From the IMG/VR virus record IMGVR_UViG_3300027972_000007, positions 62,001-126,000 of that record: a stretch of DNA of 64,000 nt; one strand, 5' to 3'. This stretch comes from a virus. The translations under genes were made by a program, and so were the position numbers. The first letter of the stretch is position 1; every line of letters begins with the position of its first letter. This document shows positions 5,566 to 50,620 of this stretch, in pieces. A model generated the notes under the pieces. It saw nothing but the letters and a program-made list of their open reading frames with translations, had not been told where the DNA came from and ran no database searches.

Positions 5566-5605
5566 AATCAACTCCTGTTTATTGTTTATTTTCTATTACT
5601 ATTAT

Positions 5606-5634
5606 AATATATATTATAACGCAAAATAAGTCAA
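5606..5634 (-). promoter_or_regulatory. Phage promoter (TTGACT-N17-TATATT)
   Basis: Reading the minus strand: TTGACT (5634-5629), 17-base spacer, TATATT (5611-5606), the -10 lying inside ATTATAATATATATTATAA. One of nine near-identical copies in the window. It drives the two small genes at 5410 and 5210. Confidence 0.8.
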
Positions 5635-5892: not shown

Positions 5893-5932
5893 ATTTCTCT
5901 CCTGTTTAATGTTTATTTTCTATTACTATTAT

Positions 5933-5962
5933 AATATATATTATAATAACAATAAAAGTCAA
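5933..5962 (-). promoter_or_regulatory. Phage promoter (TTGACT-N18-TATATT)
   Basis: TTGACT (5962-5957) and TATATT (5938-5933) on the minus strand with an 18-base spacer, inside the perfect 20-bp palindrome at 5928-5947. Drives the gene at 5638-5892. Confidence 0.8.
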
Positions 5963-13360: not shown

Positions 13361-13448
13361 TGGTGCCCAAGACCGGACTTGAACCGGTACGGTACTAAGT
13401 ACCGAGGGATTTTAAGTCCCTTGTGTATGCCAATTCCACCACTTGGGC
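13361..13448 (-). tRNA. tRNA-Leu (UAA anticodon), CCA encoded
   Basis: Minus strand: acceptor GCCCAAG/CTTGGGC, D arm with TGG loop, anticodon stem AGGGA/TCCCT around loop CTTAAAA (anticodon TAA), a long class II variable arm CGGTACTTAGTACCG, and a T arm with GGTTCAAGTCC. The discriminator A is followed by an encoded CCA. All arms pair well. TTA is a heavily used codon in this AT-rich genome, which explains keeping this tRNA. Confidence 0.95.
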
Positions 13449-13615: not shown

Positions 13616-14929
13616 CTATTCATAACGCAGCCAACTATAATTTTCTTGTATATATTTTATTGCTTCTTCTTTTGAATTAATAATTTCTTCCAGTTGTTTA
13701 TCTTCTATATCGGAAAATATAACTTTAAATATCTTTCCTTGTATAAAACCCAAACTTAATAAATCAAAACCAGTTATTAGACGAGTTGGTTTTATTTGTT
13801 CAGGAGGAATTTCATCCATTTTTTTAATTATGAAATTATAATTATCAAGATTTTTATTTGAAGCCGAACAATCGCAATAATGCAAAATTAAATGTTCGTC
13901 AAAATTAGGAATTCTAATAAATCTTTTCAATTTTGCCATTCTCATATTTTGTACGAATCTAAATTTCATGTGATTTTCAATTAATGAAACAACTCTTTCA
14001 ATAAAAGAATTTGAAAATTTCATTCTTTTTAACATTTCATTTGCCAATTTTGCTCCAACTTCGTCGTGTGAATTAAATCTGATTCTCGTATCTATATAAA
14101 AAGTATTTGGTTTTCCTATATCATGTAATAACGTACCCATTAATAATTCATCGGAAACATTAATGGGAAGATTTTCTAACGCTTGAATAGTATGTTCAAA
14201 AACATCTCCCTCAGGATGAAATTGTATTGGTTGTTGAATATTTTTTAAATTATGAACTTCGGGCAATATATATTTTAGAATATTAGTTTCATAAAGGAGA
14301 TTGAATATTTTTCTTGGTTTATGGAGCCTCAACATTTTTAATAATTCTTCTGAAATTCTTTCAACTGATATATTTACTATTTCTTCTGCATGATTTTTTA
14401 TTGAATAAAAAGTATTTGTTTCGATTTCAAAATCAAATTTTACTGCAAATCTAATTGCACGTAAAATTCTCAATTTGTCTTCCTGTATTCGTTTTTCTGG
14501 ATCGCCAATAAAACGAATTATTTTATTGTTCAAATCGTATTGACCACCAACGAAATCTATTATCTTATCTTCAATAGGATCAAAGAACATTCCGTTGATA
14601 GACAAATCTCTTCTCAAAGAATCTTCTTTCATTGAGCTGAAAGAAACAGAATCCGGTCTTCTATTATCAGTATAATTTCCATCATTTCTAAAAGTTGCAA
14701 CTTCAAATTCTGTATTATCGATTACTACTATAATAACACCAAAAGATTTTCCAACTGGAATAGTCTTATCGAAAAGTTTTTCGACTTGGTCGGGCGTTGC
14801 ATTAGTGGCAATATCTATATCATTTGATTCTATTCCGAGAATCATATCACGAACACAACCACCAGCAAACACGGCTTGAAAATTATTTTCATTTAACTTT
14901 TTTATTATTGCCAATGCTTTATTTTTCAT
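13616..14929 (-). CDS. cca: CCA-adding tRNA nucleotidyltransferase
   Basis: 437 residues, adds or repairs the 3' CCA of tRNAs using CTP and ATP. Visible hallmarks: GGCVRD near residue 22, the metal-binding DIDIATNA near 36, RRDLSINGMFFDP near 103, and the ERxxxE-like neck, followed by an HD domain (HPEGDVFEHT, LLHDIGKP, HDEVGA). Length fits bacterial class II enzymes with HD domain. The promoter at 14936-14964 puts +1 at the A of ATG, so the mRNA looks leaderless. It is 170 bases from tRNA-Leu, which already encodes CCA, so repair is the likely role. Confidence 0.93.
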   Translation of the reverse strand: MKNKALAIIKKLNENNFQAVFAGGCVRDMILGIESNDIDIATNATPDQVEKLFDKTIPVGKSFGVIIVVIDNTEFEVATFRNDGNYTDNRRPDSVSFSSMKEDSLRRDLSINGMFFDPIEDKIIDFVGGQYDLNNKIIRFIGDPEKRIQEDKLRILRAIRFAVKFDFEIETNTFYSIKNHAEEIVNISVERISEELLKMLRLHKPRKIFNLLYETNILKYILPEVHNLKNIQQPIQFHPEGDVFEHTIQALENLPINVSDELLMGTLLHDIGKPNTFYIDTRIRFNSHDEVGAKLANEMLKRMKFSNSFIERVVSLIENHMKFRFVQNMRMAKLKRFIRIPNFDEHLILHYCDCSASNKNLDNYNFIIKKMDEIPPEQIKPTRLITGFDLLSLGFIQGKIFKVIFSDIEDKQLEEIINSKEEAIKYIQENYSWLRYE

Positions 14930-14935
14930 AATTAT

Positions 14936-14964
14936 AATATATATTATAATGCAAAATAAGTCAA
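14936..14964 (-). promoter_or_regulatory. Phage promoter giving a leaderless cca mRNA
   Basis: TTGACT (14964-14959), 17-base spacer, TATATT (14941-14936) within a perfect 20-bp palindrome (14931-14950). The expected +1, seven bases after the -10, is 14929, the first base of the cca start codon. Confidence 0.8.
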
Positions 14965-15827: not shown

Positions 15828-16748
15828 TTAACACCTTATATTAGGATAATTATCTTCAAACCAATCAATTGTTTTATCTAATCCTTGCGGCAAAGGTGTA
15901 AAAGAGAATGATGGGTATAAAGAATTTAATTTTGAAACGTCTGACGGTTTTCTTTTTTGCCCATCTGGTTTTGTTTTATCAAAAATTATATTGCCTCTAA
16001 AATTCATTTTTTCTGCTATCATTTCTACTATTTTTGCAATACTTATTTCATTACCATTCGAAAATATTATCGGACTTTCTTCGTTGTAATAATTTAATGC
16101 CCACATAGATAAACGAGCTATATCAAAAGAGTATATAAATTCTCTTAATGGTTCTCCACTACCCCATATTACAAAATCTGTATTGTTCATTTTTGCTAAA
16201 TAACATTTATGAATTAATGATGGTATTACATGACCGTCTGTTAAACTGAAATTATCATTAGGGCCATATATATTAGTTGGAATTACTGTAATAAAATTAC
16301 ATCCATATTCTTTTCTATATGCTAAACTCTGTACTTCTAACATTCTTTTAGCATACGCATAAGCGAAATTTGATGGATGTGGCGGCCCATTATGCAAATC
16401 CTTTTCATTTAATGGATAATTACATTTATCAGGAAATACACAAGTAGACATAAATGAAACTAATTTTTTTACTCCTGCTAATCTCGCACATTCTAAAACA
16501 TTAAAATTAATCATAGTATTATCAGCATAAAATTTTCCTGGGCATTCACTATTAATTCCAACCCCGCCAACCTTAGCAGCAAGATGAATGATATGAGTAG
16601 GTTTGATATAATTAAAAATTGTTTTCGTTTCTTCAAAATTTCTTAAATCAACATATTTATGGGAAAGATAACAAGTGTCATAAAAATGTAATTCTTTCAT
16701 AGCATGGCCAACCAACCCATCTGCTCCTGTTATTAATAATTTACCCAT
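15828..16748 (-). CDS. fcl: GDP-L-fucose synthase (NAD(P)-dependent SDR)
   Basis: 306 residues, AAAAGGATTAAAA site. Converts GDP-4-keto-6-deoxy-mannose to GDP-L-fucose by epimerisation and reduction. Hallmarks: dinucleotide motif TGADGLVG, LAAKVGG.GIN typical of this family, catalytic STCVFP and YAKRM (YxxxK), IPTNIYGPNDNF, GSGEPLREF and DVSKL near the end. Length is usual. Paired in the window with a GT10 fucosyltransferase at 51448. No GDP-mannose dehydratase is seen here, so the substrate must come from the host or another phage region. Confidence 0.92.
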   Translation of the reverse strand: MGKLLITGADGLVGHAMKELHFYDTCYLSHKYVDLRNFEETKTIFNYIKPTHIIHLAAKVGGVGINSECPGKFYADNTMINFNVLECARLAGVKKLVSFMSTCVFPDKCNYPLNEKDLHNGPPHPSNFAYAYAKRMLEVQSLAYRKEYGCNFITVIPTNIYGPNDNFSLTDGHVIPSLIHKCYLAKMNNTDFVIWGSGEPLREFIYSFDIARLSMWALNYYNEESPIIFSNGNEISIAKIVEMIAEKMNFRGNIIFDKTKPDGQKRKPSDVSKLNSLYPSFSFTPLPQGLDKTIDWFEDNYPNIRC

Positions 16749-16750
16749 TT

Positions 16751-17776
16751 TTAATCCTTTTTATTATATAATAATTTTTGCCATTTTATGGTTTTCTTTA
16801 ACCCATCATTTAATTTTGTAAATGTTGGATTAAATTCATTTTTTATTTTATCAATATTCAAACCCACTTCTGAAGGCGATCCGTCCAACGATAAATTAGT
16901 ATTTAATTTAACTGGTGCATTTAATATATTTCCTATATTATTTGCCAAGTCAAGAATCGAGATTTTTTCATTCCCGCCAACATTATAAAGTCTTTCTTTT
17001 CCTTCAAATAATATTTTCCACAATAATTCAATCGCATCAGAAATATATATGTATGTTCTTTTTGCTAATCCTAAATCTAATAATTGAATTTTTTTCTTGA
17101 GTATTGCATTTCTAATAAATGTATTTAATACTCTCTCGTCATTTTTACGAGTCCCCATACCATACGCTAAAGCAAGTCGAATACTTTTTACATCAAAATT
17201 ATCTTTATAATTATCTACTATTGTTTCACCGCATCTTTTACCTTCAATGTAACATGCCCTCGGATGATATGGGTCGCTTTTTCCAATATTCTTTTCTTCA
17301 GGATTTGTATATAAAAGTCCACTATACACTTCACTCGAACTTAAGAAAAGAAATTTTCCATTACTTTTTAAATTTTCAAAAAGATTGAAAAGAACTGAAG
17401 TATTCAATTTCAATGTTTTTATTGGATCAGCAAGAAATTTTCCTGGTTGCCCATAAGTGGCTGCATGTATAATAATATCATAATGTGAGTTACATTTTTC
17501 AATAGTTAAATCAAAAGAACTAACATTACATGAGCTAAAATTATACAAATCTTTCAATTGTTCGTTTCTATTAATCGCTCTTACAATAAAATTACAATTA
17601 TATTTCTTGTTTAAAACATGTAAACACGCAATTAAATTAACGCCAATTAAACCACTTGCGCCAGTTATTAATATTGATTTTTCATTAATATTATTAACAA
17701 ACAAATCAACATTATTATCAACTATCTTTTCTGCTTCAGCATAAATCATTTTACTCAATATATTCATATTACTCAT
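16751..17776 (-). CDS. NAD-dependent epimerase/dehydratase (sugar-nucleotide SDR)
   Basis: 341 residues. Rossmann motif ILITGASGLIGVNL at about residue 35, catalytic SSSEVYSG and YxxxK as YIEGKR, then LALAYGMGTRKNDERVLNTFI, YIYISDAIELLWKI and VGGNEKISILDL. The N-terminal 30-residue helix before the Rossmann fold and overall layout resemble NAD-dependent dehydratases/decarboxylases of UDP- or dTDP-sugars. Exact substrate not assignable. Neighbours GDP-fucose synthase, same operon. Confidence 0.85.
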   Translation of the reverse strand: MSNMNILSKMIYAEAEKIVDNNVDLFVNNINEKSILITGASGLIGVNLIACLHVLNKKYNCNFIVRAINRNEQLKDLYNFSSCNVSSFDLTIEKCNSHYDIIIHAATYGQPGKFLADPIKTLKLNTSVLFNLFENLKSNGKFLFLSSSEVYSGLLYTNPEEKNIGKSDPYHPRACYIEGKRCGETIVDNYKDNFDVKSIRLALAYGMGTRKNDERVLNTFIRNAILKKKIQLLDLGLAKRTYIYISDAIELLWKILFEGKERLYNVGGNEKISILDLANNIGNILNAPVKLNTNLSLDGSPSEVGLNIDKIKNEFNPTFTKLNDGLKKTIKWQKLLYNKKD

Positions 17777-18478: not shown

Positions 18479-19357
18479 CTATAATTTGATTAGTTTTTCT
18501 ATCTTTTCTTTAATATTTTGAACTGTAAATCCATATTCTTTATCATGTTCTTCTTTAGTACCATATTTATTTGAAAATATTAACGGCATTCCAATATAAT
18601 CAATTACTATTGGTTTTGGATAAACTGCTTTCATTATTTTAGTTGATAATGATCCTTCATAAAATGGCTCACAAATTAAAAATTTATTAGAATTTAAAGA
18701 ATGTAATATTTCAAAATCAAAAGGTTTTAATGTAGTATAATATATTATTTTTACTGATAAATCTTTTGTTGCTTCTATTACCATATCTAAAATATTACCA
18801 GTTACTATAATACTCACATCTCCAGTATTTTTAATTAAATTAGCTTCGCCAAAATTAACAATATTATCAAAACTATTTTTGTAATCACTCAATCTAAAAA
18901 ATGTTGGGAAACCATTATTATAACTTTGGTGAAAAAGTGTATCAAATTCTTTACTGGTTCCAGGAACTACAATTTGCATATTTGGCAAATTCATTAATAT
19001 GCCAACATCTTCAGGACAATGATGAGTGGAGCCTAATGAAGCATAATCGTAAGAAGAACCAACCCCAACAAAATTACCATTTAATTTTTGGTAACAAAAA
19101 TCTAATTTCAATTGTTCAAATGCCCTATCAATCATAAATGGAGTTATTGTATGAACTATTGGAATGAAATTAGTTAAAGATAGACCTGCAGCAACAGAAA
19201 CCATAGATTGTTCGAGTATACCAATATTATATGTTCTATTAGGATAATCTTTAAAACAATTTCTAAATCCAAAGACGCCAATATCACCCAAAAGAAGAAC
19301 TATTTTTTTGTCTTCTTTCATTAATGATTCGACTGTTTTAATAAATTGTTTACGCAT
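18479..19357 (-). CDS. Transketolase-like C-terminal half (pyrimidine-binding subunit)
   Basis: 292 residues from the ATG at 19357, which overlaps the previous stop as TAATG. Contains the pyrimidine-binding domain features LLLGDIGVFGF, YNIGILEQSMVSVAAGLSLTNFIPIVHTITPF (the GI-E-Q motif with catalytic Glu), and a C-terminal Rossmann-like domain with TGNILDMVIEA. It is the partner of the N-terminal half at 20410. Together they would make a two-subunit transketolase. Three small Cys-rich genes lie between the halves. Confidence 0.85.
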   Translation of the reverse strand: MRKQFIKTVESLMKEDKKIVLLLGDIGVFGFRNCFKDYPNRTYNIGILEQSMVSVAAGLSLTNFIPIVHTITPFMIDRAFEQLKLDFCYQKLNGNFVGVGSSYDYASLGSTHHCPEDVGILMNLPNMQIVVPGTSKEFDTLFHQSYNNGFPTFFRLSDYKNSFDNIVNFGEANLIKNTGDVSIIVTGNILDMVIEATKDLSVKIIYYTTLKPFDFEILHSLNSNKFLICEPFYEGSLSTKIMKAVYPKPIVIDYIGMPLIFSNKYGTKEEHDKEYGFTVQNIKEKIEKLIKL

Positions 19358-19548
19358 TATTTTTCCGATATGTTTGTCAGTTTTTTTCCACATCTTTTAC
19401 AAAGACTATTTTCTTTAGCGCAAGAAGGACATGGCTGATTAACCCAACCAGCCCAATATCTACCATGTTTTTCGCACAAACCATCGCCTCGAATGGACGG
19501 AATTTGCCATTTCTTTTTACATCTATCACAAATAAGTTCTATACCCAT
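19357..19548 (-). CDS. Small protein with three CxxC pairs
   Basis: 63 residues, TAGGATAAA site. CDRC, CPSC and CKRC plus a CEKHGRYW segment give one or two zinc sites, rubredoxin/zinc-ribbon-like. Sits between the transketolase halves and overlaps the C-half start. Confidence 0.6.
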   Translation of the reverse strand: MGIELICDRCKKKWQIPSIRGDGLCEKHGRYWAGWVNQPCPSCAKENSLCKRCGKKLTNISEK

Positions 19549-20409: not shown

Positions 20410-21237
20410 TTAATACGTTCCATTTTTATGATCCTCCGCGAGAGAAAACCCCGACCCTCGTGGTCGGGGTAGTTGACTCATTATCATTTCATATTCTTCT
20501 TTACTTGGTATTTTATGATGCCATTCAGGATTATTTTCCATCATTTTACATCTATGTCCCTTAATTGTATTTGCTATAATTGCAACAGGCAAAGTATCTT
20601 TTTTAGTAAAATTTTCAAAACAATTTATAGCATCTTTTATTTCTTTATGATTATGGCCATTTATTTCAAAACTAAACCACCCAAATGAATTAAATTTATC
20701 GACTAAATTATCAATTTCTATTGCTCTATCATTAGAGTGATTATAATCTACAATACAATACAAATTATTTAATTTATGTTGTGCAGCTATTAAAGCACTT
20801 TCCCAGATAGTTCCTTCATTACATTCGCCGTCACCAATTATCACATATACTTTAGCATTAGATTTTTTAATTTTCAAAGCTAAAGCAATTCCAACTGCCA
20901 TAGGAAATCCATGCCCTAATGAGCCAGTAGAACATTCAATTCCGGGTACTTTATTTTTATCGGCATGACCGCCAAATATACTATCATATTTCCCAAAATT
21001 TTCTAATTCGCTTATTTTAAAAAAATGATTTTTGGCTAATATAGCATAATGAGCTAATGCAGCATGTCCTTTACTCAAAATAATTCTATCTCTATTATCA
21101 TTATTAATATTTAATGGATTTATATTGCAATTTGAATAAAGAACATCTAATATATCAAGTACTGATAATGAAGATGGAATGTGCCCTTCTTTAGCATTAT
21201 ATGCCGTTTCAATAATTATTTTTATTAATTCTTTCAT
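20410..21237 (-). CDS. Transketolase-like N-terminal half (TPP-binding subunit)
   Basis: 275 residues. TPP motif GDGECNEGTIWESALIAAQ...N, plus AKEGHIPSSLSVLDIL, RIILSKGHAALAHYA and GSLGHGFPMAVGIALALK. It binds thiamine diphosphate and transfers two-carbon units between sugar phosphates with the C-half at 18479. The expected end is near residue 255; the last about 20 residues (from QLPRPRGSG) are encoded by a GC-rich terminator-like hairpin and look added. Context is sugar-nucleotide genes. Confidence 0.88.
   Translation of the reverse strand: MKELIKIIIETAYNAKEGHIPSSLSVLDILDVLYSNCNINPLNINNDNRDRIILSKGHAALAHYAILAKNHFFKISELENFGKYDSIFGGHADKNKVPGIECSTGSLGHGFPMAVGIALALKIKKSNAKVYVIIGDGECNEGTIWESALIAAQHKLNNLYCIVDYNHSNDRAIEIDNLVDKFNSFGWFSFEINGHNHKEIKDAINCFENFTKKDTLPVAIIANTIKGHRCKMMENNPEWHHKIPSKEEYEMIMSQLPRPRGSGFSLAEDHKNGTY
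20441..20469 (-). terminator. GC-rich terminator hairpin inside the 3' end of a gene
   Basis: Minus strand: CCCCGACC / GGTCGGGG with loop ACGAG, then TTTTCTCT. A perfect 8-bp all-strong stem in an AT-rich genome, lying within the last codons of the transketolase N-half. It would stop or attenuate transcription before the following genes. Confidence 0.7.
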
Positions 21238-22502: not shown

Positions 22503-24422
22503 TTACATATTAATCATCTTAAAAAAATCACTTTCACTTAATATTTCCACTCCCAATTTTTTAGCTTTTTGGGTTTTAGAACTTACTGAATTAGGATCTG
22601 CCACAACCAAATAACTTAATCCTTTTTTAACTGATACTTCAACCACGCCGCCGTTTTCTAAAACAATATCCCACATATTTTCACGGGTTAATCTTTTTCC
22701 GTCTTCGCATCGCTGTATTGCACCAGTAAAACAAAAGGATTTTCCTTCTAAATTATTATTCATAGCCTTTTTTCTTTCTATTTGTTTAATGGTAATAACT
22801 TTCAATAATTTTTCAATAATAATTTTTTTATCATTCAATCCATTTATAATCTGATCTGCAGTTTTTTCGCCAATTCCTGATATTTTTACTAATTCTTCTT
22901 TTGATAAATTTTGTATTTTATCAATAGTATCATAACCAGATTTAATAATAGATTCGGCAGTTTTGCCCGAAAAATTTGGCATATTCAAACCAGAAATAAA
23001 TTGCGGAATTGTGATTTCTTTTTTCGAATTAATATTTTCGAGAAGTTTATTGGTTGATCTTTCACCCATTCTTTCAAGTTTTAGAATATCTTCTTTTTTC
23101 AAAGTATATAAATCTGCAGGATCTTTAATTAAAGAATGTTTATATAATTGTTCTATAATTTTATCGCCAACATCCATAATTTCAATACTGTTAATCCATT
23201 TATTAATATTGCCCAGCATCAATCCGTCACATTTCGGGTTTTTGCAAACTAAATATTCTCCTTCAATGGTTGTTTTATCATTACATATTGGACAATATAT
23301 AGGAAATTCAATTTTTTTACTTTTTTCGTCTGAAAATATTACTTTTTCGAAGTATGGAATTACATCATTGGCTCGTTTTATTTGGACTTTATCATTATAT
23401 CTCAAATTATGAACTAGAAATGTGTTCACATTATGTAATGTTACATGAGTAATATTTACTCCGCCGCAAGGAACTTTTTCTACAATTGCAACAGGTGTTA
23501 TTCTTCCAGAATTTCCTAAACTCCATTCAACATCTAACAACGTAGTTTCGGCGCTCATAGCTTCAAATTTCCATGCAATTGCTGCTTTTAAATTAGCTCC
23601 AAGAAACCCATGTTTTTCTTGTAACTTAATATTATTACATTTTATGACTAAACCGTCGATGTCATATTTTGTCTTTGCTCTCAAATAATTTTCAAAATTA
23701 TGAAAGATTTCTATAACATGTTCTTTTTTAGCTAATTCATGAAAACAGATTTTAATTTCATTTTTATCAAAAAACAAAAACTTTTCACTTTCCGAATCGA
23801 CATCAATGCCAATAATATCGTAATGAAGCACTGACAAGTATTCCGACCAGTTTCTGTCAAATCTTTTTGCAATACCATTTGCTGCATTGCGAGGATTGGA
23901 AAATTCTTTTTCTTCATTTTCTCTTTTGATTCTATTTATTTCTTCAAAATCCTCTCTTAAAAGAAATATTTCTGCCCTTAATGAACCTGTAAAATTTGGA
24001 ATATTCTTTTTCACATTTTTCATTTTCAGAACATTAGATAAAATCATTTCACCTTCTATACCATCTCCTCTTGTTGTTGCTGCTACCAGATTCCCATTTT
24101 TATAATCTAAAGAAAGCGAAGCCCCATCTAATTTATCCATAACCATATAATATTCGTCATTAATTTCATTTGCCCACTTAGTAAATTCTTCAACAGAATT
24201 TACTTTATTGAGCGAATACATAGGAATAGTGTGTTTATATTTTTTCCATTCTGTCATTTCAACATTTGCGCCAATTTGTTTAAGATAAGGATCCTCCGGG
24301 TTTATTTTTCTTAAAATATCTTTATGTATATCATATTCTTTATCACTCATTGTAGAATTTGATAAATTATAATATGCATTATCAGCTGCTATAAGAGTAT
24401 TCCTGATTTCATTTACGTTCAT
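22503..24422 (-). CDS. ligA: NAD-dependent DNA ligase
   Basis: 639 residues, own promoter, ATAGGAGAAAAAATA site. Joins DNA nicks using NAD+. Domains in order: Ia helices (1-60), adenylation domain with the active Lys in KLDGASL (about 115) and the AWKFEA motif, OB fold (VEWSLGNSGRITPVAIVEKV), zinc finger (CPICND...CKNPKCDG), helix-hairpin-helix repeats, and a BRCT domain at the end (SFCFTGAI). Slightly shorter than the usual bacterial 670. It lies downstream of the phage NAD operon, which would supply its cofactor. Confidence 0.95.
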   Translation of the reverse strand: MNVNEIRNTLIAADNAYYNLSNSTMSDKEYDIHKDILRKINPEDPYLKQIGANVEMTEWKKYKHTIPMYSLNKVNSVEEFTKWANEINDEYYMVMDKLDGASLSLDYKNGNLVAATTRGDGIEGEMILSNVLKMKNVKKNIPNFTGSLRAEIFLLREDFEEINRIKRENEEKEFSNPRNAANGIAKRFDRNWSEYLSVLHYDIIGIDVDSESEKFLFFDKNEIKICFHELAKKEHVIEIFHNFENYLRAKTKYDIDGLVIKCNNIKLQEKHGFLGANLKAAIAWKFEAMSAETTLLDVEWSLGNSGRITPVAIVEKVPCGGVNITHVTLHNVNTFLVHNLRYNDKVQIKRANDVIPYFEKVIFSDEKSKKIEFPIYCPICNDKTTIEGEYLVCKNPKCDGLMLGNINKWINSIEIMDVGDKIIEQLYKHSLIKDPADLYTLKKEDILKLERMGERSTNKLLENINSKKEITIPQFISGLNMPNFSGKTAESIIKSGYDTIDKIQNLSKEELVKISGIGEKTADQIINGLNDKKIIIEKLLKVITIKQIERKKAMNNNLEGKSFCFTGAIQRCEDGKRLTRENMWDIVLENGGVVEVSVKKGLSYLVVADPNSVSSKTQKAKKLGVEILSESDFFKMINM

Positions 24423-24461
24423 TATTTTTTCTCCTATTATGTTTATTTTCTTTCTTATTAT

Positions 24462-24490
24462 AATATATATTAAATTTCAATAAAAGTCAA
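24462..24490 (-). promoter_or_regulatory. Phage promoter for ligA (TTGACT-N17-TATATT)
   Basis: TTGACT (24490-24485), 17-base spacer, TATATT (24467-24462) on the minus strand. It lies directly after the stop of the 24497 gene and gives ligA a transcript independent of the NAD operon. Confidence 0.8.
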
Positions 24491-24496
24491 GAACTA

Positions 24497-24895
24497 TTAT
24501 ATATTAAGTAAATTTAAATTCATTTCACATATCATATTTGTTCTTTTATCAGAACGAAATATCATTTTTTCTATTTTTAATTTTGTTTTATCTTCAGCTT
24601 CAACGATATAATAAGATATATCCTTCGCTATATCATAAGGAAGCAATTGCTCTAATTGGTTTTTTGAAAATAATTTATAAGTAACTCTATTTTCAAATTT
24701 TTTATCAGTTAAACGAAAAAGCAAATTATCAATTCTTTTTCTTACTATTTTTAGTGCTTCTTTTTTCGAAAAAATATCAGCTTTTAAAAATGGTTTAGCA
24801 TACGCCATCAATAAATTATTATCGTGCTTTTGAAACATAACAGTATATTTAGGTACTGAATTGCCATCTCTTCCATGAAAAATAATTTCTTTCAT
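24497..24895 (-). CDS. Hypothetical protein at the end of the NAD operon
   Basis: 132 residues, AAGGAGACGAT site. Alpha/beta with EALKIVRKRIDNLLFRLTD and VEAEDKTKLKIEKMIF. No recognised motif. Being last in the NAD/kinase operon, it may belong to the same function. Confidence 0.55.
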   Translation of the reverse strand: MKEIIFHGRDGNSVPKYTVMFQKHDNNLLMAYAKPFLKADIFSKKEALKIVRKRIDNLLFRLTDKKFENRVTYKLFSKNQLEQLLPYDIAKDISYYIVEAEDKTKLKIEKMIFRSDKRTNMICEMNLNLLNI

Positions 24896-24907: not shown

Positions 24908-25504
24908 TTATTTGTACAAATTATGTTTATTAATATAATTAGCTACATTCTTTGATACTAATTCTTCGAACTCAATATTATGTTTAATATTTTCTCTTAT
25001 TTTTGTACTAGAAATATTGAAAATTATTTTTTTATATACTTCAAAATTAGAAGATAATTCTCTATTAATATGATACTGATCCCTTCGTATAACTAAAAAA
25101 TCAAATTCCTTCATCAATCGAACACCTTCGTACCATTTCGATTCTATTTCACACTTCCCGTTTTTCTGAAATATTAAATCAGATCCAATTATAAATTTCA
25201 ATTTAGTCTGATGAAATTCTTCTTTTAATTGTCTTAACATTAGAATCGAAAAAGTATTTGTTGAATAAACATTATTGTAACGAATAATAAATTCAGTTTT
25301 ATAATTAAAATCTCTAAATTTTCCGAATGCTAATTCAGACATATTTACTCTATGATCAGGACAAACATATTTTTTATCATTTCTTTCTCCTGATAAAATT
25401 AAAATAATTTTTTCGAATACTTCGTCGTCCATTAAATTTGATATTAATGCTTCGTGACCTATATGTGGAGGATTTGCAGAAATTCCTAATATTCCTATCA
25501 TCAT
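24908..25504 (-). CDS. nadD: Nicotinate-nucleotide adenylyltransferase
   Basis: 198 residues. Adenylates nicotinate mononucleotide to deamido-NAD. The nucleotidyltransferase HIGH motif appears as NPPHIGHEAL at residue 11, and the C-terminal ISSTKIRENI matches the family's ISSTxIR signature; GSDLIF corresponds to the GxD motif. Length fits NadD. Start overlaps the nadE stop as ATGA (25501-25504), indicating coupling. NMN as an alternative substrate cannot be excluded. Confidence 0.9.
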   Translation of the reverse strand: MMIGILGISANPPHIGHEALISNLMDDEVFEKIILILSGERNDKKYVCPDHRVNMSELAFGKFRDFNYKTEFIIRYNNVYSTNTFSILMLRQLKEEFHQTKLKFIIGSDLIFQKNGKCEIESKWYEGVRLMKEFDFLVIRRDQYHINRELSSNFEVYKKIIFNISSTKIRENIKHNIEFEELVSKNVANYINKHNLYK

Positions 25505-26331
25505 TCACCATCCCATGAAAAAATATTTTCTCTCGAAAAATTATATGGATTTTTTCTTTTAAATTCTGAATTAAAATGTCGTTCAACTACCGCATCTGGA
25601 AGAAAAAAACTATCTGTTTCAATATAATTTTGCAAAATTTTATCAACTTCTTCATATGCATTTCTACAATTTTGAAACTTTTTATTCCAGTTTGGCATTA
25701 TTTGGTCTAAATCAGAATTTGTTATACCTAATCCGTCAGTGGGAATTGCATCAATGCAATCTTTTAATCCTTCTGAATGATTAATAGAATATAAATATTC
25801 TGATAAAGTATAAACTTCAGTTTTCCAAAGTGATTGAATCATACCCAAATCACCCACATCGCCATGCAAAGTCCAAAATCCAAGCAAATATTCTGTATAA
25901 TTATCGGTAGAAAGAACAAGACCTTTTTTATCGCCTGCAATCCAATATAAATATTTCATTCTTATTCTAGCCTTTAAATTTCCTTGGGCTATTTTTGACA
26001 TTATAACATATTCTGAAACTTCAAAAACTCTCTTTTCTTCTAAATATAAATTTGTTAAATCTGCTTCTGCAAAACTTGTGCATAATTCATAACCTACCAA
26101 TCTTGCTCTTTTAATTTCATCATCTTTATTAGTTTCAATTGGTATACTTCTCCCTATTAAAGGAATATTCAATTTATCGCAAACTGGTTTTGCTATTGCA
26201 CAACATAATGCACTATCAATTCCGCCACTAACTCCAATAACCAAACATTTAATATGATGCTGTTCAATATAATTTATTAATTCTTTTCTAATATTGAATG
26301 TTAATTTTTGCATATCAATAAAAACATTCAT
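25501..26331 (-). CDS. nadE: NH3-dependent NAD synthetase
   Basis: 276 residues. Amidates deamido-NAD to NAD+ with ATP and ammonia. The PP-loop SGGIDSALCCA is at about residue 34; STDNYTEYLLGFWTLHGDVGDLG and KTEVYTL match the deamido-NAD and dimer regions. No glutaminase domain, so it uses free ammonia. Overlaps nadD by 4 bases; 8 bases after the kinase gene. Confidence 0.93.
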   Translation of the reverse strand: MNVFIDMQKLTFNIRKELINYIEQHHIKCLVIGVSGGIDSALCCAIAKPVCDKLNIPLIGRSIPIETNKDDEIKRARLVGYELCTSFAEADLTNLYLEEKRVFEVSEYVIMSKIAQGNLKARIRMKYLYWIAGDKKGLVLSTDNYTEYLLGFWTLHGDVGDLGMIQSLWKTEVYTLSEYLYSINHSEGLKDCIDAIPTDGLGITNSDLDQIMPNWNKKFQNCRNAYEEVDKILQNYIETDSFFLPDAVVERHFNSEFKRKNPYNFSRENIFSWDGE

Positions 26332-26339
26332 AATTTAAC

Positions 26340-28019
26340 TCATTTCATTGTTACATAATATAATTTTTTATCATCAACAAACAGTACTTGCATTTGTTCG
26401 TTATATAATCTTACTGATGCATCAAAAGGACAATTTGTTATTTCTTTTCTTTTTATATTGTCAATAAATATTATCAATTTTTCATCGTCAATAGAAATAC
26501 AATAATTATTTGGTAAAACAATAAAATTCGATAAATGAAAATTTAAAATATCTTCTACCCTTATTGTATACTTTGAATGATCTGCATTAAAACAAATAAA
26601 AAATCTTAAATATTTATTTAGTTTTTCCGCAATTACAATACAAATTCTTTTATCATATTTAGCGTCTACAATTCTGTATCCATCCAATTCTTTAACATGA
26701 ATATTTACACATTTATCTTTTTCAAATGGAATTGCTAAATGACAAACCATAAAATCATCCTGAACGACTACTCCTTTAAACATTTTATATGATGAACCAA
26801 TATTGCAAATATTCTTTGTCATATGAACGATTTTACCAATACGTTCAAAAGTATTTTCTATGAGATGATTATTATTTATTGTATAAAGAATATTATTATA
26901 CCCCATCATATCTTCTGCTTGTATTGAACTAATATTACTACCATTTAAATCATAAAATGTTGCTAAATTATCTATTAATTGAACTACAAGAGGTTTGTCA
27001 TTAAAAACTTCGCACATTCCAGTCAAAAATGATTTTGCAGATTTTTTTATTGCAAAAACATTTTTATTATTATCATAAATTCCTTCTGATGTTAAAATAT
27101 AACGTTTATTATTTAAATAAAAAATACTTCTTATCTGTTTTTCCATTTCAACAATTTCTTTTATGATAAAATCATCAGAACTTCCAATCTTTCTAGTTAT
27201 AATTCCAGAAACAGTATCGTCTGCGAATGGAGGTATTGATCTTTCATTTTTTTGAAATACTAATTTATACCAATCTAATTGTGCTTTAGGAATAACTGAA
27301 AAATCCTGGCATATTTTAGGAAGAATTACATCTTTATCAAAAACTGAAATTCCTAAATCCATCCTTTTACTCCATTCGTCGGGCTTAAATTTTGGGTGTT
27401 TACCTTTATAAGGATGGATTCCAGTATACATCTGAAACGTAACAACAGCCCATGCAAACCAATCAGATAATTCTGTAAATTTATCTGTCGTTCTGTCTCG
27501 TATTGATTCCATAATTGCATTAACTTTAAAATTTTTTGTCTGCCACGAATCAACATCAATATGAAAAACTGTTGTTATCATCTTATCAAGAAGAAAATTC
27601 ATTTCATTATAATCAACTACTAAAATTTTATTATCATGAATATACTGTAACGTTTTTTGCATTTCTGTTATTAATGAAACAATATTTGTCTGATTTATTC
27701 CTTTACTGTCTTTGAAATTTTTTGTAAAAATTTGACAAAGAAATTCAATATCTTTGACAAATTTCATAGTAAATCCTATAGGTTTATTTGTCGTATAATC
27801 ATATAATGTAGATATTGGACCTAAAATATTATCGCGTTTCAATTCACTTAATTCTTGAATTTTAGCTTCTGGTATCATTTTTTGTGGGTCGTGGTATATT
27901 TTATACGCTAAATCTCCCTTACAAAAAACAACTCCCTGCCCACCTGCTGCTTTATATTCTTTTTCAGTAAGAGTTATGATATTTTTTTTATCGGTGACTT
28001 TGTATGTTGTTTTATTCAT
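26340..28019 (-). CDS. Protein kinase-like protein of a TerY-P-type trio
   Basis: 559 residues. N-terminal kinase domain (about 10-300): Gly-rich loop AAGGQGVVF, the ATP Lys in AYKIYHD, a catalytic loop DYNEMNFLLD and a DFG-equivalent IDVDSW, then WFAWAVVTFQMYTGIHPY. The remaining 250 residues are beta-rich with repeated aromatic/Asn blades (LATFYDLNG, YLRFFICF), possibly a propeller-like sensor; I see no zinc ribbon or HhH tail as in many TerY-P kinases. Start overlaps the PP2C stop as ATGA. Known TerY-P systems join VWA, PP2C and kinase in one operon. Confidence 0.8.
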   Translation of the reverse strand: MNKTTYKVTDKKNIITLTEKEYKAAGGQGVVFCKGDLAYKIYHDPQKMIPEAKIQELSELKRDNILGPISTLYDYTTNKPIGFTMKFVKDIEFLCQIFTKNFKDSKGINQTNIVSLITEMQKTLQYIHDNKILVVDYNEMNFLLDKMITTVFHIDVDSWQTKNFKVNAIMESIRDRTTDKFTELSDWFAWAVVTFQMYTGIHPYKGKHPKFKPDEWSKRMDLGISVFDKDVILPKICQDFSVIPKAQLDWYKLVFQKNERSIPPFADDTVSGIITRKIGSSDDFIIKEIVEMEKQIRSIFYLNNKRYILTSEGIYDNNKNVFAIKKSAKSFLTGMCEVFNDKPLVVQLIDNLATFYDLNGSNISSIQAEDMMGYNNILYTINNNHLIENTFERIGKIVHMTKNICNIGSSYKMFKGVVVQDDFMVCHLAIPFEKDKCVNIHVKELDGYRIVDAKYDKRICIVIAEKLNKYLRFFICFNADHSKYTIRVEDILNFHLSNFIVLPNNYCISIDDEKLIIFIDNIKRKEITNCPFDASVRLYNEQMQVLFVDDKKLYYVTMK

Positions 28020-28861
28020 GATTTAGTAAATACTTGTTTGTTAAAAATTGTAGAAATTGAAACATCGTCATAATGTGTCCACAAATTCTCTATTGATTTT
28101 TTAAAAAATGACATTCGTTTTTTAATAAACTCGCCCGTTGTTGATTTAAAATTTATAATTTGAGGAACAATTTTAGAAATTTCTATTGAATTTTTATTTA
28201 AATCTCTATATGAACAAACACCATCAGAACAAATTGTTAAAGAAACAAAATCTTCCGCGTATTTTGAATGAAAAATATATGGCGTGAAAAATTCAAATTC
28301 TTCATATTCTTTTTCTATTTTTGAATCAAAACCCGAAATATGCGTTATTTCATAATTAACTTTTGGAACGATTGATCGATTAATTAGTGCGTCTGAATAA
28401 TCATCTTTATTTGTTGACAAATAAAATGGCATATTATTTGGATAATCTATTTTTGTTATTTTAATATTATTATTTTTATCTTTTAAAATTACCAGCCCGT
28501 CTCCCCAAGCAAAAACATAAATATCATTTTCTATTTGTAGTGAAATAAGCAATGTAGCTTGTAATGATAATGAAGAAACTGAATATAATTTATGTAAAAC
28601 GTCTGCTCTTTTTAAAATACTATTACCCAATAATCTAGATAATGTTTGTTCTGAACACTCTTTAAACAAACCGGCTTTATAATAAAGTATTAAACAGCAT
28701 TTTGCTGCATGGCATAAAATTTGAGCCCCAATTTCAGAATATTCTGCTGACGAACACCCATCAGAAATAATTCCGTATGTCATTTTATCTACAGTTCCAT
28801 GCAATACATAATCTTGGCAAACTAAATGTGAATTGCCAATTTCAGAATATGAATCAATCAT
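28016..28861 (-). CDS. PP2C-type Ser/Thr phosphatase
   Basis: 281 residues. Metal-binding motifs of the PPM family: CQDYVLHG near the start, ISDGCSSAEYSEIGA, WGDGLVIL and TICSDGVCSY. It would remove phosphates placed by the kinase that follows with a 4-base overlap. Preceded by the VWA gene. The order VWA - PP2C - kinase matches the TerY-phosphorylation triad described in tellurium-resistance-like systems. Confidence 0.85.
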   Translation of the reverse strand: MIDSYSEIGNSHLVCQDYVLHGTVDKMTYGIISDGCSSAEYSEIGAQILCHAAKCCLILYYKAGLFKECSEQTLSRLLGNSILKRADVLHKLYSVSSLSLQATLLISLQIENDIYVFAWGDGLVILKDKNNNIKITKIDYPNNMPFYLSTNKDDYSDALINRSIVPKVNYEITHISGFDSKIEKEYEEFEFFTPYIFHSKYAEDFVSLTICSDGVCSYRDLNKNSIEISKIVPQIINFKSTTGEFIKKRMSFFKKSIENLWTHYDDVSISTIFNKQVFTKS

Positions 28862-28917
28862 ATTTTCTCCTAAATATAGGTCTTTATATTCCTATAAAAA
28901 CCCATATAAATTTCGTA

Positions 28918-29694
28918 CTAAAATTTAAAATCTATTGGCTGGGATGCTCCGCCAGTTCCGAGTGCTTGAGACGTCGAAGAAACACTTTGTGAAATAAATT
29001 GTGCTAATTTAGCCAATTTCTTTTCGGAAACTTCGCCGACTGAAATATATTCATCTATTCCAGCATCATTTTTAAAAGTTTCTAAACACTTTTTAAAATG
29101 AGGATCGGTATCATTAACACCAATTAAAATGACCTTAATTGACTCCATCACCTCTTCTTTTTTTATTGCATTAATTGCTTCTTTCACGTCTGAAGTAAAA
29201 GATTTTGACGCATTGTCGTCGCCGTCAGTAATAACAAAAATAATGGCATTGGCATTAAAAACATTTTCTCCGTCATACAATTTTTTTGCATAATCTCTTG
29301 TCGTGTCAATTGCTTCGAGAGTTGCATCATACAGCGGAGTACTCCCACTTGGCTGAATAGTATTTTTAAAATTTACTGTATCTATTGTACTCAACAATGT
29401 AAATCCATGTATTTCTTCAATATCGCTATTGCGTCTGCCTGAATTTGCACTAAATGCGGTTGTTCTTGCAAGAAGATTTAAAGATCTCGGAGATCTTTTG
29501 CAAGATTCCATACAAGCTATTAACATCTGTTCCAACAAATCTTTAAACGGTTCAACCGAACCGGTTTTATCAACGACATTAGTGACAAAAGTGTATTCTG
29601 TTGCGCCGAGTTTATCAACAGAAATAGTAGTATAACCAAAACCTTGAAGGGTCTGGCTAACTTCGGTTGCATCAACTCCCATTAATTTTGGCAT
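28918..29694 (-). CDS. VWA domain protein, TerY-like
   Basis: 258 residues, strong GGAGGAAATTTT site. MIDAS metal site visible: DKTGS (variant DxTxS) at about residue 41, the Thr in PSGSTPLYDA near 117, and the Asp in VITDGDDNAS near 155. VWA domains bind partners through Mg2+. First of the VWA-PP2C-kinase trio, immediately after the nicotinamidase gene. C-terminal tail is Ser/Gly/Gln-rich and flexible. Confidence 0.85.
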   Translation of the reverse strand: MPKLMGVDATEVSQTLQGFGYTTISVDKLGATEYTFVTNVVDKTGSVEPFKDLLEQMLIACMESCKRSPRSLNLLARTTAFSANSGRRNSDIEEIHGFTLLSTIDTVNFKNTIQPSGSTPLYDATLEAIDTTRDYAKKLYDGENVFNANAIIFVITDGDDNASKSFTSDVKEAINAIKKEEVMESIKVILIGVNDTDPHFKKCLETFKNDAGIDEYISVGEVSEKKLAKLAQFISQSVSSTSQALGTGGASQPIDFKF

Positions 29695-29744: not shown

Positions 29745-30569
29745 TTAAAAGAATGATGTCGTCGTGGAAATCTGCATTCCTTTTTGTTTGTACTCATCGA
29801 TGAAACTTTCTCCCATAAACTCACAACCAGGAACATTCGACGTCGCATCTTTAAGCAACACAAATTTCTTAATCTGGTCTGCAGAAAATTCAGAAAAAAC
29901 ATCGCGCATTGTATTTGCAAAACAGTGAGATAATGCTTCGCCTGCACCGAGAATAACATCATATTTTTTCAATATATTAATAAAAGGGGTATTTAATCTT
30001 GTCAATGGGTCATTAGGATCTTCGACATCGGCTTTCACTGCGCTATAATGTTCTGTAAAAGGATTTGATCCTTTTGTTGTTCTTGGCGCAACAGCATGAA
30101 ATCTATCTTCCCATTGATCTACTGCTTGTAGAAAAACAGATTCCAAACATTGTCCTGGTGAGCCAATTATACAATGTTCAGGCCAAATCATCAGTTTATA
30201 ACGCTTATTGTCGTCCAGAGCTTTCAAATATTTGAGATATCTTGCTTGAAAATCTGGATTATATGCTCTCCAATCACCTTTTTCAGCCATTTCATAAGTT
30301 AAGAAAGTAGGAACTGTGCTGCCTGAATTTAAAAAGATTGGCAGTGGATGCTTACCAGAATTATTTACCCAACATCTTGCATGTGCAATGTGAACCTTAT
30401 AATGACTATCCATCGTAATTTGAATTTCTTCAATATCGTCTCCATATTTTTTAATCATGGTTGCCAATCTCTTCATGTCTTCATCTGCACCAGGCACAAA
30501 CAAATTACCTTTTGGATTGCAGAAATCAAATTGTGGGTCGATTACCAACAAACAAACCTTTTTATTCAT
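29745..30569 (-). CDS. pncA: Nicotinamidase (isochorismatase-like cysteine hydrolase)
   Basis: 274 residues, AAAGGAGTTGAT site. Deamidates nicotinamide to nicotinate. Catalytic pieces: Asp in LLVIDPQFDFCNP, ITMDSHYKVHIAH metal-site region (DxHxxxHIAH), IWPEHCIIGSPG, and the nucleophile Cys in GEALSHCFANTM. Longer than standalone bacterial PncA (about 210) owing to inserts around 80-160. Feeds PncB encoded next upstream. Adjacent to the VWA gene downstream. Confidence 0.88.
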   Translation of the reverse strand: MNKKVCLLVIDPQFDFCNPKGNLFVPGADEDMKRLATMIKKYGDDIEEIQITMDSHYKVHIAHARCWVNNSGKHPLPIFLNSGSTVPTFLTYEMAEKGDWRAYNPDFQARYLKYLKALDDNKRYKLMIWPEHCIIGSPGQCLESVFLQAVDQWEDRFHAVAPRTTKGSNPFTEHYSAVKADVEDPNDPLTRLNTPFINILKKYDVILGAGEALSHCFANTMRDVFSEFSADQIKKFVLLKDATSNVPGCEFMGESFIDEYKQKGMQISTTTSFF

Positions 30570-30592: not shown

Positions 30593-31765
30593 TTAAAATA
30601 TTTTCAAAATTTGTTTACATAGTTTTATTGTTTCAATATCGCCAGTATTTTTATTGGGGTCGTCTGATAATTTAACTGATTTTACCCATAAACCATCAAC
30701 CACACATTCAGTTAATTTAATAACAATATTTAGTGGTTTTGCTCCCACATCATTGGTAAACCATGTACCAACTCCATAAAAATCGTTTATAAAACCATTA
30801 CATGCTTTATGAATTACAGAAATTTGTGAAACACTTTTTAAATTATCTGAAAAAACTATTTGTTTCGTCTGCGAATCAATACTCAAATTATGATACTTCG
30901 AAATTATTTTTCTAGCAAATTCTATCGGATCGCCGCTATCTTGTCTAACTCCATCAAAAATTCTTGCATATAATGAATCAAAACTATTTAAAAAATTATT
31001 AGTAGTAAAAGTATCAGGTAAAGCAATACCTAAATTTCCTTTATAAACATCTACCCAATTTTTCATCGCCATTCGATTTGCCCACTGGAACCCGAAGCGT
31101 GCTGCATGAAATTGAGTCCATTCATGTGCTTGAGTTCCTATAGGTAATATATCAAATTCTTTTGCGATACTTAAATTGCTCGACCCAAATAAAAAATTTC
31201 CATGCTCAATAAAATCTCTAACAACATTAAAATGATTATTATAAGAAAATCTTCTTCTAGTACCAAAATCTGTAATAACAACATCAAGTTTATTTAATTC
31301 TTTTGCTTTTCTCTTATTATATAATCTCAAATCTTCTGCAGATTTTTGTGTTCCTGCAGTTTTTTCAAAATAAAGTTGAGATATAGTTGCCATTAAAGGC
31401 ACTTCCCAAAGAATAGTTCTATACCAGTAACCTTCGATATGAATTTTTAATTCTGAACCAACTTGTTCGATTATTACTTCGCTCGGATCATATTCATAAC
31501 CATCGAGAAAATCTAAATAAAATGGATTTAAATAATAACATTTCTGTCTTAAAAACTTCTTTTCTTCTTTTGTTAATTTAATTCCTCTGAAAGTTTCAAC
31601 TATTCGTTTTAATTCGTCTGCAAAACCATTAGGAAATGATCTATTATCCCTATTAAAAAATTCATATCTTACTACTTTATCTGGATATAATTTGCATACT
31701 GCATTTTGCATTGTAAATTTATATAAATCATTATCTAAAAAATCATTCACATATCCATTACTCAT
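30593..31765 (-). CDS. pncB: Nicotinate phosphoribosyltransferase
   Basis: 390 residues, AAAGGAATGAC site. Makes nicotinate mononucleotide from nicotinate and PRPP. Features: NDLYKFTMQNAVCKLYP, FFNRDNRSFP, TDFGTRRRFSYNNHFNVV, GTQAHEWTQFH, FDGVRQDSGDP and NDVGAKPLNIVIKL, which match the bacterial PncB type rather than the longer NadV type. First NAD enzyme in the operon. Confidence 0.92.
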   Translation of the reverse strand: MSNGYVNDFLDNDLYKFTMQNAVCKLYPDKVVRYEFFNRDNRSFPNGFADELKRIVETFRGIKLTKEEKKFLRQKCYYLNPFYLDFLDGYEYDPSEVIIEQVGSELKIHIEGYWYRTILWEVPLMATISQLYFEKTAGTQKSAEDLRLYNKRKAKELNKLDVVITDFGTRRRFSYNNHFNVVRDFIEHGNFLFGSSNLSIAKEFDILPIGTQAHEWTQFHAARFGFQWANRMAMKNWVDVYKGNLGIALPDTFTTNNFLNSFDSLYARIFDGVRQDSGDPIEFARKIISKYHNLSIDSQTKQIVFSDNLKSVSQISVIHKACNGFINDFYGVGTWFTNDVGAKPLNIVIKLTECVVDGLWVKSVKLSDDPNKNTGDIETIKLCKQILKIF

Positions 31766-32717: not shown

Positions 32718-32759
32718 ATCAATCTCCTGTTTAACTTGTTCAATTTCTTTTCATGTTAT

Positions 32760-32788
32760 AATATATATTATAAAAAGAAATAAGTCAA
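32760..32788 (-). promoter_or_regulatory. Phage promoter for the NAD / VWA-PP2C-kinase operon
   Basis: TTGACT (32788-32783), 17-base spacer, TATATT (32765-32760) on the minus strand. No other promoter of this family occurs until 24490, so this one probably drives all genes from 32717 to 24497. Confidence 0.75.
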
Positions 32789-32815
32789 TAAGTATTTTAA
32801 ATTATTTTTGATATA

Positions 32816-50585: not shown

Positions 50586-50591
50586 ATTTAT

Positions 50592-50620
50592 AATATATAT
50601 TATAATAAGAAATAAGTCAA
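50592..50620 (-). promoter_or_regulatory. Phage promoter giving a leaderless transcript
   Basis: TTGACT (50620-50615), 17-base spacer, TATATT (50597-50592) on the minus strand. Spacing to the ATG is the same as for cca at 14929. Confidence 0.8.

What the first reader, a model, noticed from the sequence alone, without database searches (positions are those of the whole stretch)
24908..29694. A VWA / PP2C / kinase trio (TerY-P-like) inserted inside a phage NAD-synthesis operon
Seen: a VWA protein with a MIDAS motif, a PP2C phosphatase and a kinase-like protein lie consecutively with 4-base overlaps, between the nicotinamidase gene and nadE. Known: VWA-PP2C-kinase triads occur in TerY-P systems linked to tellurium resistance and stress. 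Inference: embedding such a signalling trio in the middle of an NAD pathway in a phage suggests phosphorylation control of NAD supply, or sensing of NAD loss caused by host immunity.
Basis: partly seen in the sequence, partly recalled or inferred. Interest (0 to 1): 0.87.

Follow-up and report, generated by a model that had tools for sequence, protein, structure and literature searches.

The report
Phage NAD-salvage module with kinase switch
Huge phages, and some bacteria, share a four-gene unit that joins a nicotinamide-recycling enzyme to a protein kinase, a phosphatase and a peptide-binding protein beside NAD-making genes, which suggests that these viruses control the supply of a key cell metabolite by protein phosphorylation.

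Summary
The trio is real: a VWA protein with a complete MIDAS, a PP2C phosphatase and a kinase, all with catalytic residues intact, lie between pncA and nadE. It is not an insertion. In independent scans the nicotinamidase and the trio form one conserved quartet, PncA-VWA-PP2C-KIN. The KIN scan alone gave 55 dereplicated phage places; PncA lies nearby on the same strand in 54, and the exception is cut by a contig end. The four genes co-inherit (distance rho 0.55-0.68), whereas neighbouring pncB and nadE do not (rho about 0). NadE, NAPRTase and Nudix/NrtR genes are still 6-7-fold enriched within 10 kb. Bacteria (Acidobacteriota, Armatimonadota, a Variovorax megaplasmid) carry it too, beside NrtR, PARG, NADAR, PRPP-synthetase, pncB or nadE genes. 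The kinase is a TerY-P relative of a separate clade whose C-terminal domain is beta-propeller-like instead of a zinc ribbon. Best reading: a complete nicotinamide-to-NAD (Preiss-Handler) salvage pathway whose committing enzyme is governed by a dedicated kinase/phosphatase/VWA switch, used to hold NAD up during infection. Phosphorylation itself is untested. I found no published description.

The parts
29745..30569 (-). PncA: nicotinamidase, 274 aa; core gene 1 of the quartet
   Evidence: Profile hits yeast Pnc1 2e-13; AF2 model pLDDT 94.9, best PDB matches are nicotinamidases, 5e-15; D11, D54, H56, H132, K166, C216 invariant in 41 relatives, aligned with the catalytic and metal residues of Pnc1
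28918..29694 (-). VWA: TerY-like von Willebrand A protein, 258 aa; core gene 2
   Evidence: PF00092 3e-4; MIDAS D42, S46, T119, D157 invariant in 40 relatives; aligns with R478 TerY-C VWA incl. its C-terminal tail
28016..28861 (-). PP2C-type phosphatase, 281 aa; core gene 3
   Evidence: PF13672 7.7e-15; D17, D34-G35, D121, D213, D265, D266 invariant in 38 relatives
26340..28019 (-). KIN: protein kinase domain (about 1-265) with an all-beta, propeller-like C-terminal domain (284-558), 559 aa; core gene 4; overlaps PP2C by 4 bases
   Evidence: Pkinase 2.4e-5; K40, D136, N141, D155 invariant in 47 relatives; AF2 pLDDT 91.3, pTM 0.90; Foldseek
25501..26331 (-). NadE: ammonia-type NAD synthetase, 276 aa
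   Evidence: TIGR00552 3.7e-35 over cut-off
24908..25504 (-). NadD: nicotinate-nucleotide adenylyltransferase, 198 aa
   Evidence: TIGR00482 9e-28; CTP_transf_like over cut-off
30593..31765 (-). PncB: nicotinate phosphoribosyltransferase, 390 aa
   Evidence: TIGR01514 1e-110 over cut-off
24497..24895 (-). small protein of unknown function in the same gene run
   Evidence: no family found
22503..24422 (-). LigA: NAD-dependent DNA ligase, a phage NAD consumer next to the run
   Evidence: TIGR00575 6e-145 over cut-off
32743..32804 (-). promoter-like repeat (TTGACT-17-TATATT on the - strand) upstream of the gene run
   Evidence: direct repeat, 74% to 24445-24506; core TTATAATATATATTA 24 strand hits in the contig, 0 in the reversed control
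24445..24506 (-). second copy of the promoter-like repeat, just upstream of ligA

Best explanation
The locus encodes a complete nicotinamide-to-NAD (Preiss-Handler) salvage pathway (PncA, PncB, NadD, NadE). Its first, committing enzyme, nicotinamidase, belongs to an older co-inherited unit with a dedicated phospho-switch: a kinase with a propeller-like domain, a PP2C phosphatase, and a TerY-like VWA protein that binds a peptide through Mg2+. The unit raises or holds NAD during infection by turning nicotinamide, the product of NADase and ADP-ribosyltransferase reactions, into nicotinate for the phage's or the host's PncB-NadD-NadE. Kinase and phosphatase set the activity or assembly of the PncA-VWA complex in response to NAD, ADP-ribose or nicotinamide state. 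The likeliest benefit is resistance to NAD-depleting host defences and supply of phage NAD consumers such as the adjacent LigA. Shown: gene content, intact active sites, near-obligate linkage, co-inheritance, NAD/ADP-ribose context. Inferred: that the kinase acts on PncA/VWA, the signal sensed, and the anti-immune benefit. (A role in NAD metabolism I hold at about 0.9; the specific switch-on-PncA mechanism at about 0.5.)
For: KIN-only scan: PncA in 53 of 55 dereplicated viral places within 10 kb, same strand (the two others: 11 kb away, and a contig end); VWA-only scan: 64 of 66. Order PncA-VWA-PP2C-KIN in 106 of 150 places. Co-inheritance rho 0.55-0.68 among the four, about 0 with PncB/NadE. 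Enrichment within 10 kb: NadE 23 vs 3.1 expected, Nudix 24 vs 4.2, NAPRTase 17 vs 2.9. The PRTases are NAPRTase, not NAMPT. 10 of 39 neighbouring phage Nudix carry the NrtR winged helix, 5 an adenylyltransferase domain. Bacterial quartets beside NrtR, PARG, NADAR, PRPP synthetase, pncB, nadE. Active sites invariant.
Against: No phosphorylation data and no substrate known. 11 of 50 large contigs show neither NadE nor NAPRTase, though contigs may be fragments and PncA could feed host enzymes. NadE and PncB do not co-inherit with the quartet. One MAG contig (L240) has a kinase without the other three within 10 kb. No NAD-depleting defence has been linked to it.
Confidence: 0.6

Rival explanations
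1. A TerY-P-like conflict system carried by the phage against competing phages or host factors: kinase, PP2C and VWA form the sensor/effector, and the nicotinamidase only reads out or resets the NAD signal when an NADase or ADP-ribosyl toxin acts.
For: TerY-P-like modules act as antiphage systems (Gao et al. 2020 as cited in PMC11090510); bacterial copies sit beside PARG, NADAR, macro and NrtR genes, a context proposed to counter phage ADP-ribosylation (PMC9503650).
Against: No nuclease, helicase or toxin recurs with the quartet; the partner that never leaves is a metabolic enzyme, with salvage enzymes enriched around it; PADLOC gives only generic kinase hits.
Confidence: 0.15
2. PncA serves to remove nicotinamide, a product inhibitor of ADP-ribosyltransferases, sirtuins and similar NAD-splitting enzymes, so that phage or host ADP-ribosyl chemistry runs forward; NAD resynthesis is secondary.
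For: Tpt1/KptA, macro-like, ADP-ribosylglycohydrolase and Nudix genes recur nearby; some contigs carry the quartet without NadE/NAPRTase. Nicotinamide inhibition of such enzymes is established biochemistry (own knowledge).
Against: NadE and NAPRTase are enriched next to the quartet and all four salvage steps are encoded here.
Confidence: 0.12
3. The kinase trio regulates other proteins (for example host RNA polymerase or translation), and PncA is a member for structural reasons only.
For: No substrate is known; VWA domains can act as general peptide binders (PMC7159879).
Against: PncA active-site residues are invariant in 41 divergent relatives, so catalysis is under selection.
Confidence: 0.1
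4. Chance neighbours: an unrelated signalling trio landed in an NAD operon once.
For: The window alone would allow it; TerY-P-like triads L288, L289, L294 and R478 have no PncA beside them.
Against: Recurrence in over 100 divergent places with co-inheritance and positional enrichment.
Confidence: 0.02

Closest known systems
TerY-P triad (e.g. plasmid R478: TerY-C VWA, PP2C, kinase; Anantharaman et al. 2012 as cited in PMC11090510)
   Same: VWA + PP2C + kinase in adjacent genes; the profiles align with the R478 proteins (hhalign E 3.5e-5, 2.7e-4, 5e-4), including the VWA C-terminal tail and the kinase I-D-V-D motif
   Different: Adds an inseparable nicotinamidase; kinase C-terminus is propeller-like and lacks CxxC zinc-ribbon motifs; kinases form a separate clade (support 94); no ter genes around; NAD/ADP-ribose context
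Phage NAD reconstitution, NARP2-type / NadV-NadM-NadR salvage (PMC9503650; Osterman et al. 2024)
   Same: Phage-encoded resynthesis of NAD from nicotinamide, thought to counter NAD depletion
   Different: Deamidating four-step route (PncA, PncB/NAPRTase, NadD, NadE) instead of NAMPT + NMNAT; a kinase/phosphatase/VWA module is attached; the 2022 survey text mentions no nicotinamidase, NadE or PP2C
NrtR-regulated bacterial NAD salvage
   Same: nrtR lies directly upstream of pncA-VWA-PP2C-KIN in an Acidobacteriota contig (L293/L241)
   Different: NrtR acts on transcription; a post-translational kinase/phosphatase module in such a locus is not described in the papers I could search
ARG-centric bacterial systems with NrtR/WYL regulators and vWA chaperones (PMC9503650, section 3.8)
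   Same: Nudix-type regulator, NADAR/macro enzymes and a VWA protein around ADP-ribose metabolism
   Different: Centred on ADP-ribosylglycohydrolase and rhodanese-type phosphatases; no nicotinamidase, PP2C or kinase described there

Membership tests
TerY-P triad | TerY-like VWA with MIDAS | tested here: met
   MIDAS invariant in 40 relatives; alignment to R478 VWA E 3.5e-5
TerY-P triad | PP2C-type phosphatase with metal-binding aspartates | tested here: met
   PF13672 7.7e-15; invariant Asp residues
TerY-P triad | Ser/Thr-type kinase with catalytic residues | tested here: met
   invariant K40, D136, N141, D155; kinase fold
TerY-P triad | Kinase fused at the C-terminus to a zinc ribbon (or OB fold) | tested here: not met
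   About 24-strand all-beta domain; two or more CxxC motifs in only 1 of 144 relatives
TerY-P triad | Kinase falls among TerY-P kinases in a tree | tested here: not met
   All 59 kinases of this group on one side of a branch, support 94, against 7 TerY-P-like kinases without PncA (quick tree, R478 branch very long)
Nicotinamidase (PncA/Pnc1) | Asp-Lys-Cys triad and metal-binding Asp-His-His, nicotinamidase fold | tested here: met
   activity itself not testable here
Preiss-Handler (deamidating) NAD salvage | PncA, NAPRTase, NadD and NadE all present | tested here: met
NARP2 / NadV salvage | NAMPT-type PRTase making NMN | tested here: not met
   PRTase is NAPRTase by TIGR01514, over cut-off; long relatives also NAPRTase-like
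NARP1 (Adps + Namat) | ADP-ribose pyrophosphate synthesis and nicotinamide ADP-ribose transferase | not tested
   No search with Adps or Namat models was made

The most novel reading that the evidence does not exclude
A previously unrecognised NAD-homeostasis system, shared by huge phages and diverse bacteria, in which a dedicated kinase (propeller-like sensor domain), PP2C phosphatase and TerY-like VWA protein control nicotinamidase and so gate NAD reconstitution post-translationally in response to NAD loss or ADP-ribose signals raised by immunity.
Probability: 0.45. Interest if true: 0.9.

Novelty: new variant of a known kind. Interest (0 to 1): 0.8.

Why it matters
Phages are known to rebuild NAD against NAD-depleting immunity, but no control of such a pathway by reversible protein phosphorylation is described in the papers I could search, and what TerY-P-like triads phosphorylate is, as far as I know, an open question. 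A near-obligate partnership of such a triad with one named metabolic enzyme gives a concrete candidate substrate (nicotinamidase) and concrete candidate signals (nicotinamide, NAD, ADP-ribose), and so makes that question directly testable. The system is common in huge phages and occurs on an annotated plasmid of Variovorax sp. SRS16, so it can be tried at the bench.

Tried and rejected
Chance neighbours or recent insertion: rejected by survey, co-inheritance and positional enrichment. NAMPT-type pathway: rejected. Ordinary TerY-P membership: rejected on the kinase C-terminus and the tree; the R478 kinase has a very long branch, so its own place is unsure. PADLOC gave only generic kinase hits (PD-T4-6). 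PHROGs has no family matching the PP2C or kinase, and in 50,697 phage records only three uncultured huge phages match the kinase, which may explain why it was missed. A Nudix gene in the window's own contig: none found. The neighbour cluster I read as macrodomain by eye (L186 5000-5476) had no Pfam hit, so I do not claim it. The primary papers on NARP (Osterman 2024) and TerY-P (Anantharaman 2012) are not held.

Full report
OBSERVATION. The window is 62001-126000 of a 170,170-bp IMG/VR contig that also encodes a contractile tail sheath and a phage DNA polymerase. On the - strand, in order of transcription, lie PncB 31765-30593, PncA 30569-29745, VWA 29694-28918, PP2C 28861-28016, kinase 28019-26340, NadE 26331-25501, NadD 25504-24908, an unknown ORF 24895-24497 and the NAD-dependent ligase LigA 24422-22503. 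Only PP2C/kinase and NadE/NadD overlap by 4 bases; VWA-PP2C has a gap of 56 bp and kinase-NadE of 8 bp. Pfam supports PP2C strongly, but the kinase and the VWA only below its cut-offs; alignments of 38-47 relatives settle the question, with catalytic residues invariant in all four core proteins. The kinase model (pLDDT 91, pTM 0.90) has a kinase fold plus about 24 strands in residues 284-558; Foldseek's best hit is LRRK2 (kinase + WD40), and P22 gp10 and Vps18 also appear, so I call the domain propeller-like; this is not proven. The PncA model matches nicotinamidases.

SURVEY. Viral contigs were scanned separately with the kinase, the VWA and the PncA, and genome contigs with the kinase. Overlapping loci were merged into 150 places and annotated with profiles. 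Starting from the kinase alone, 55 dereplicated viral places have PP2C in 55, VWA in 52 and PncA in 53 within 10 kb, all on the same strand; the two lacking PncA are a contig cut at the PP2C (L051) and a locus with PncA 11 kb away (L036). Starting from the VWA alone, 64 of 66 have PncA and 63 have the kinase. The order PncA-VWA-PP2C-KIN is found in 106 of 150 places; five more are circularly permuted (PP2C-KIN-PncA-VWA), which is also the order in three contigs of the phylum of L241, Acidobacteriota (L285-L287). So the unit is a quartet, and the 'trio inserted between pncA and nadE' is better read as a quartet followed by nadE and nadD.

CO-INHERITANCE. For 111 places with all four genes, pairwise protein distances correlate between PncA, VWA, PP2C and KIN (Spearman 0.55-0.68; none of 200 permutations as high). 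With PncB or NadE of the same places the correlation is about zero (n=34-36), although PncB and NadE correlate with each other (0.58). PncA is therefore part of the unit, and the rest of the pathway is repeatedly re-acquired around it.

NAD CONTEXT. On 50 large viral contigs, NadE lies within 10 kb of the quartet 23 times (3.1 expected from contig lengths), Nudix 24 (4.2) and NAPRTase 17 (2.9); 39 of 50 contigs have NadE or NAPRTase somewhere. The long PRTases of relatives are NAPRTase-like, so the route is the deamidating one. Of 39 neighbouring phage Nudix proteins, 10 match the NrtR winged helix and 5 match an adenylyltransferase domain as in NadM. Tpt1/KptA, PRPP synthetase, RtcB, RNA ligase, Thg1 and an ADP-ribosylglycohydrolase also recur.

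BACTERIA. The quartet is also on bacterial chromosomes: next to NrtR and PARG in an Acidobacteriota contig (L293), next to NadE and PRPP synthetase on a 1.36-Mb Armatimonadetes contig (L292), and beside PncB (with PncA, VWA and kinase recognised) on a 7.6-Mb contig (L291). Variovorax sp. SRS16 plasmid 2 has PncA-VWA and, about 20 kb away with IS elements between, PP2C-KIN-pncB, with NADAR, NAD synthase, Nudix, macro-domain and NAD kinase genes around. In a kinase-domain tree all 59 kinases of this group, phage and bacterial, lie on one side of a branch (support 94) from seven TerY-P-like kinases without PncA; phage and bacterial members interleave (for example L061 with L237, support 100), so genes have moved between phages and bacteria, or some 'viral' contigs are bacterial.

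MECHANISM. Shown: four intact enzymes or binding proteins in a near-obligate partnership beside NAD/ADP-ribose genes. From established biochemistry: nicotinamidase commits nicotinamide to nicotinate, which PncB, NadD and NadE make into NAD; nicotinamide is released by NADases and ADP-ribosyltransferases. Inferred: kinase and PP2C set the state of PncA or of a PncA-VWA complex; the propeller-like domain, or the Nudix/NrtR partner where present, reads NAD or ADP-ribose; the phage gains by holding NAD up under NAD-depleting immunity and for its LigA. Because PncA alone would feed the host's own enzymes, contigs with the quartet but without PncB/NadE still make sense.

EXPRESSION. A 62-nt intergenic repeat at 32743-32804 and 24445-24506 reads TTGACT-17-TATATT on the - strand; its palindromic core has 24 strand hits in the contig and none in the reversed control. 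The two copies bracket the gene run, which suggests one transcript from the small genes upstream of PncB through the unknown ORF, and ligA separately. This is inference from sequence.

NOVELTY. The 2022 survey of viral NAD-ADPr systems (PMC9503650) lists NadV, NadM and NadR; its text has no nicotinamidase, PncA, NadE, PP2C or TerY. The huge-phage paper (PMC7162821) mentions none of it. A 2026 phage paper (PMC13384950) lists pncB, nadM, nadD, nadE and NAMPT without such a module in the passages read. No held paper has TerY and nicotinamidase together. Subscription papers are not covered. I file it as a new variant of a known kind: TerY-P-like signalling joined to NAD salvage.

LIMITS. IMG/VR contigs are partly fragments and some may be bacterial; ORFs were called mechanically; expected numbers assume uniform gene placement; one MAG contig (L240) has a lone kinase; 13 of 24 kinase-bearing MAG contigs lack part of the quartet, many of them short; function rests on sequence, structure models and context.

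Noticed in passing
window 5602-5619, 5929-5946, 14932-14949, 24458-24472, 32756-32773, 50588-50605: Recurrent intergenic palindromic element TTATAATATATATTATAA next to AAGTCAA; on the - strand it reads TTGACT-17-TATATT, a promoter-like repeat; 24 strand hits in the contig, 0 in the reversed control.
   Followed up: partly
window 20410-21237 (-) and 18479-19393 (-): Transketolase encoded as two separate ORFs, N-terminal and C-terminal halves.
   Followed up: no
window 13361-13448 and 13616-14929 (-): tRNA-Leu (taa) beside a CCA-adding-type tRNA nucleotidyltransferase with HD domain.
   Followed up: no
window 15828-17776 and 44283-45662 (-): Sugar-nucleotide genes: epimerase/dehydratases and a HAD + nucleotidyltransferase fusion, suggesting surface glycan synthesis by the phage (16751-17776 by eye only).
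   Followed up: no
window 41748-42803, 50633-51451, 59185-60126, 62379-63245 (-): Radical SAM/SPASM protein, calcineurin-like phosphoesterase, clamp-loader AAA+ ATPase, DHH/DHHA1 protein.
   Followed up: no
L295-L297 (Variovorax sp. SRS16 plasmid 2, record positions 566000-675500): Megaplasmid with the quartet split by about 20 kb including IS3 and IS21 genes, plus NADAR, NAD synthase, pncB, Nudix, macro domain and NAD kinase.
   Followed up: partly
L285 1892-2728, L286 5337-5852, L293 3803-4660: Microbial-type PARG (PF10021) and NADAR (PF08719) genes near bacterial quartets.
   Followed up: partly
neighbour clusters (e.g. L009 15703-16923, L030 18686-19804, L029 899-1912, L058 1859-2692): RNA-repair genes (RtcB, RNA ligase, Thg1, Tpt1/KptA) recur near the quartet in several phages, suggesting a joint tRNA- and NAD-repair region.
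   Followed up: partly
merged places M009 (L010), M046 (L054), M084 (L132), M116 (L200): A second VWA gene lies near the quartet in several phages.
   Followed up: no
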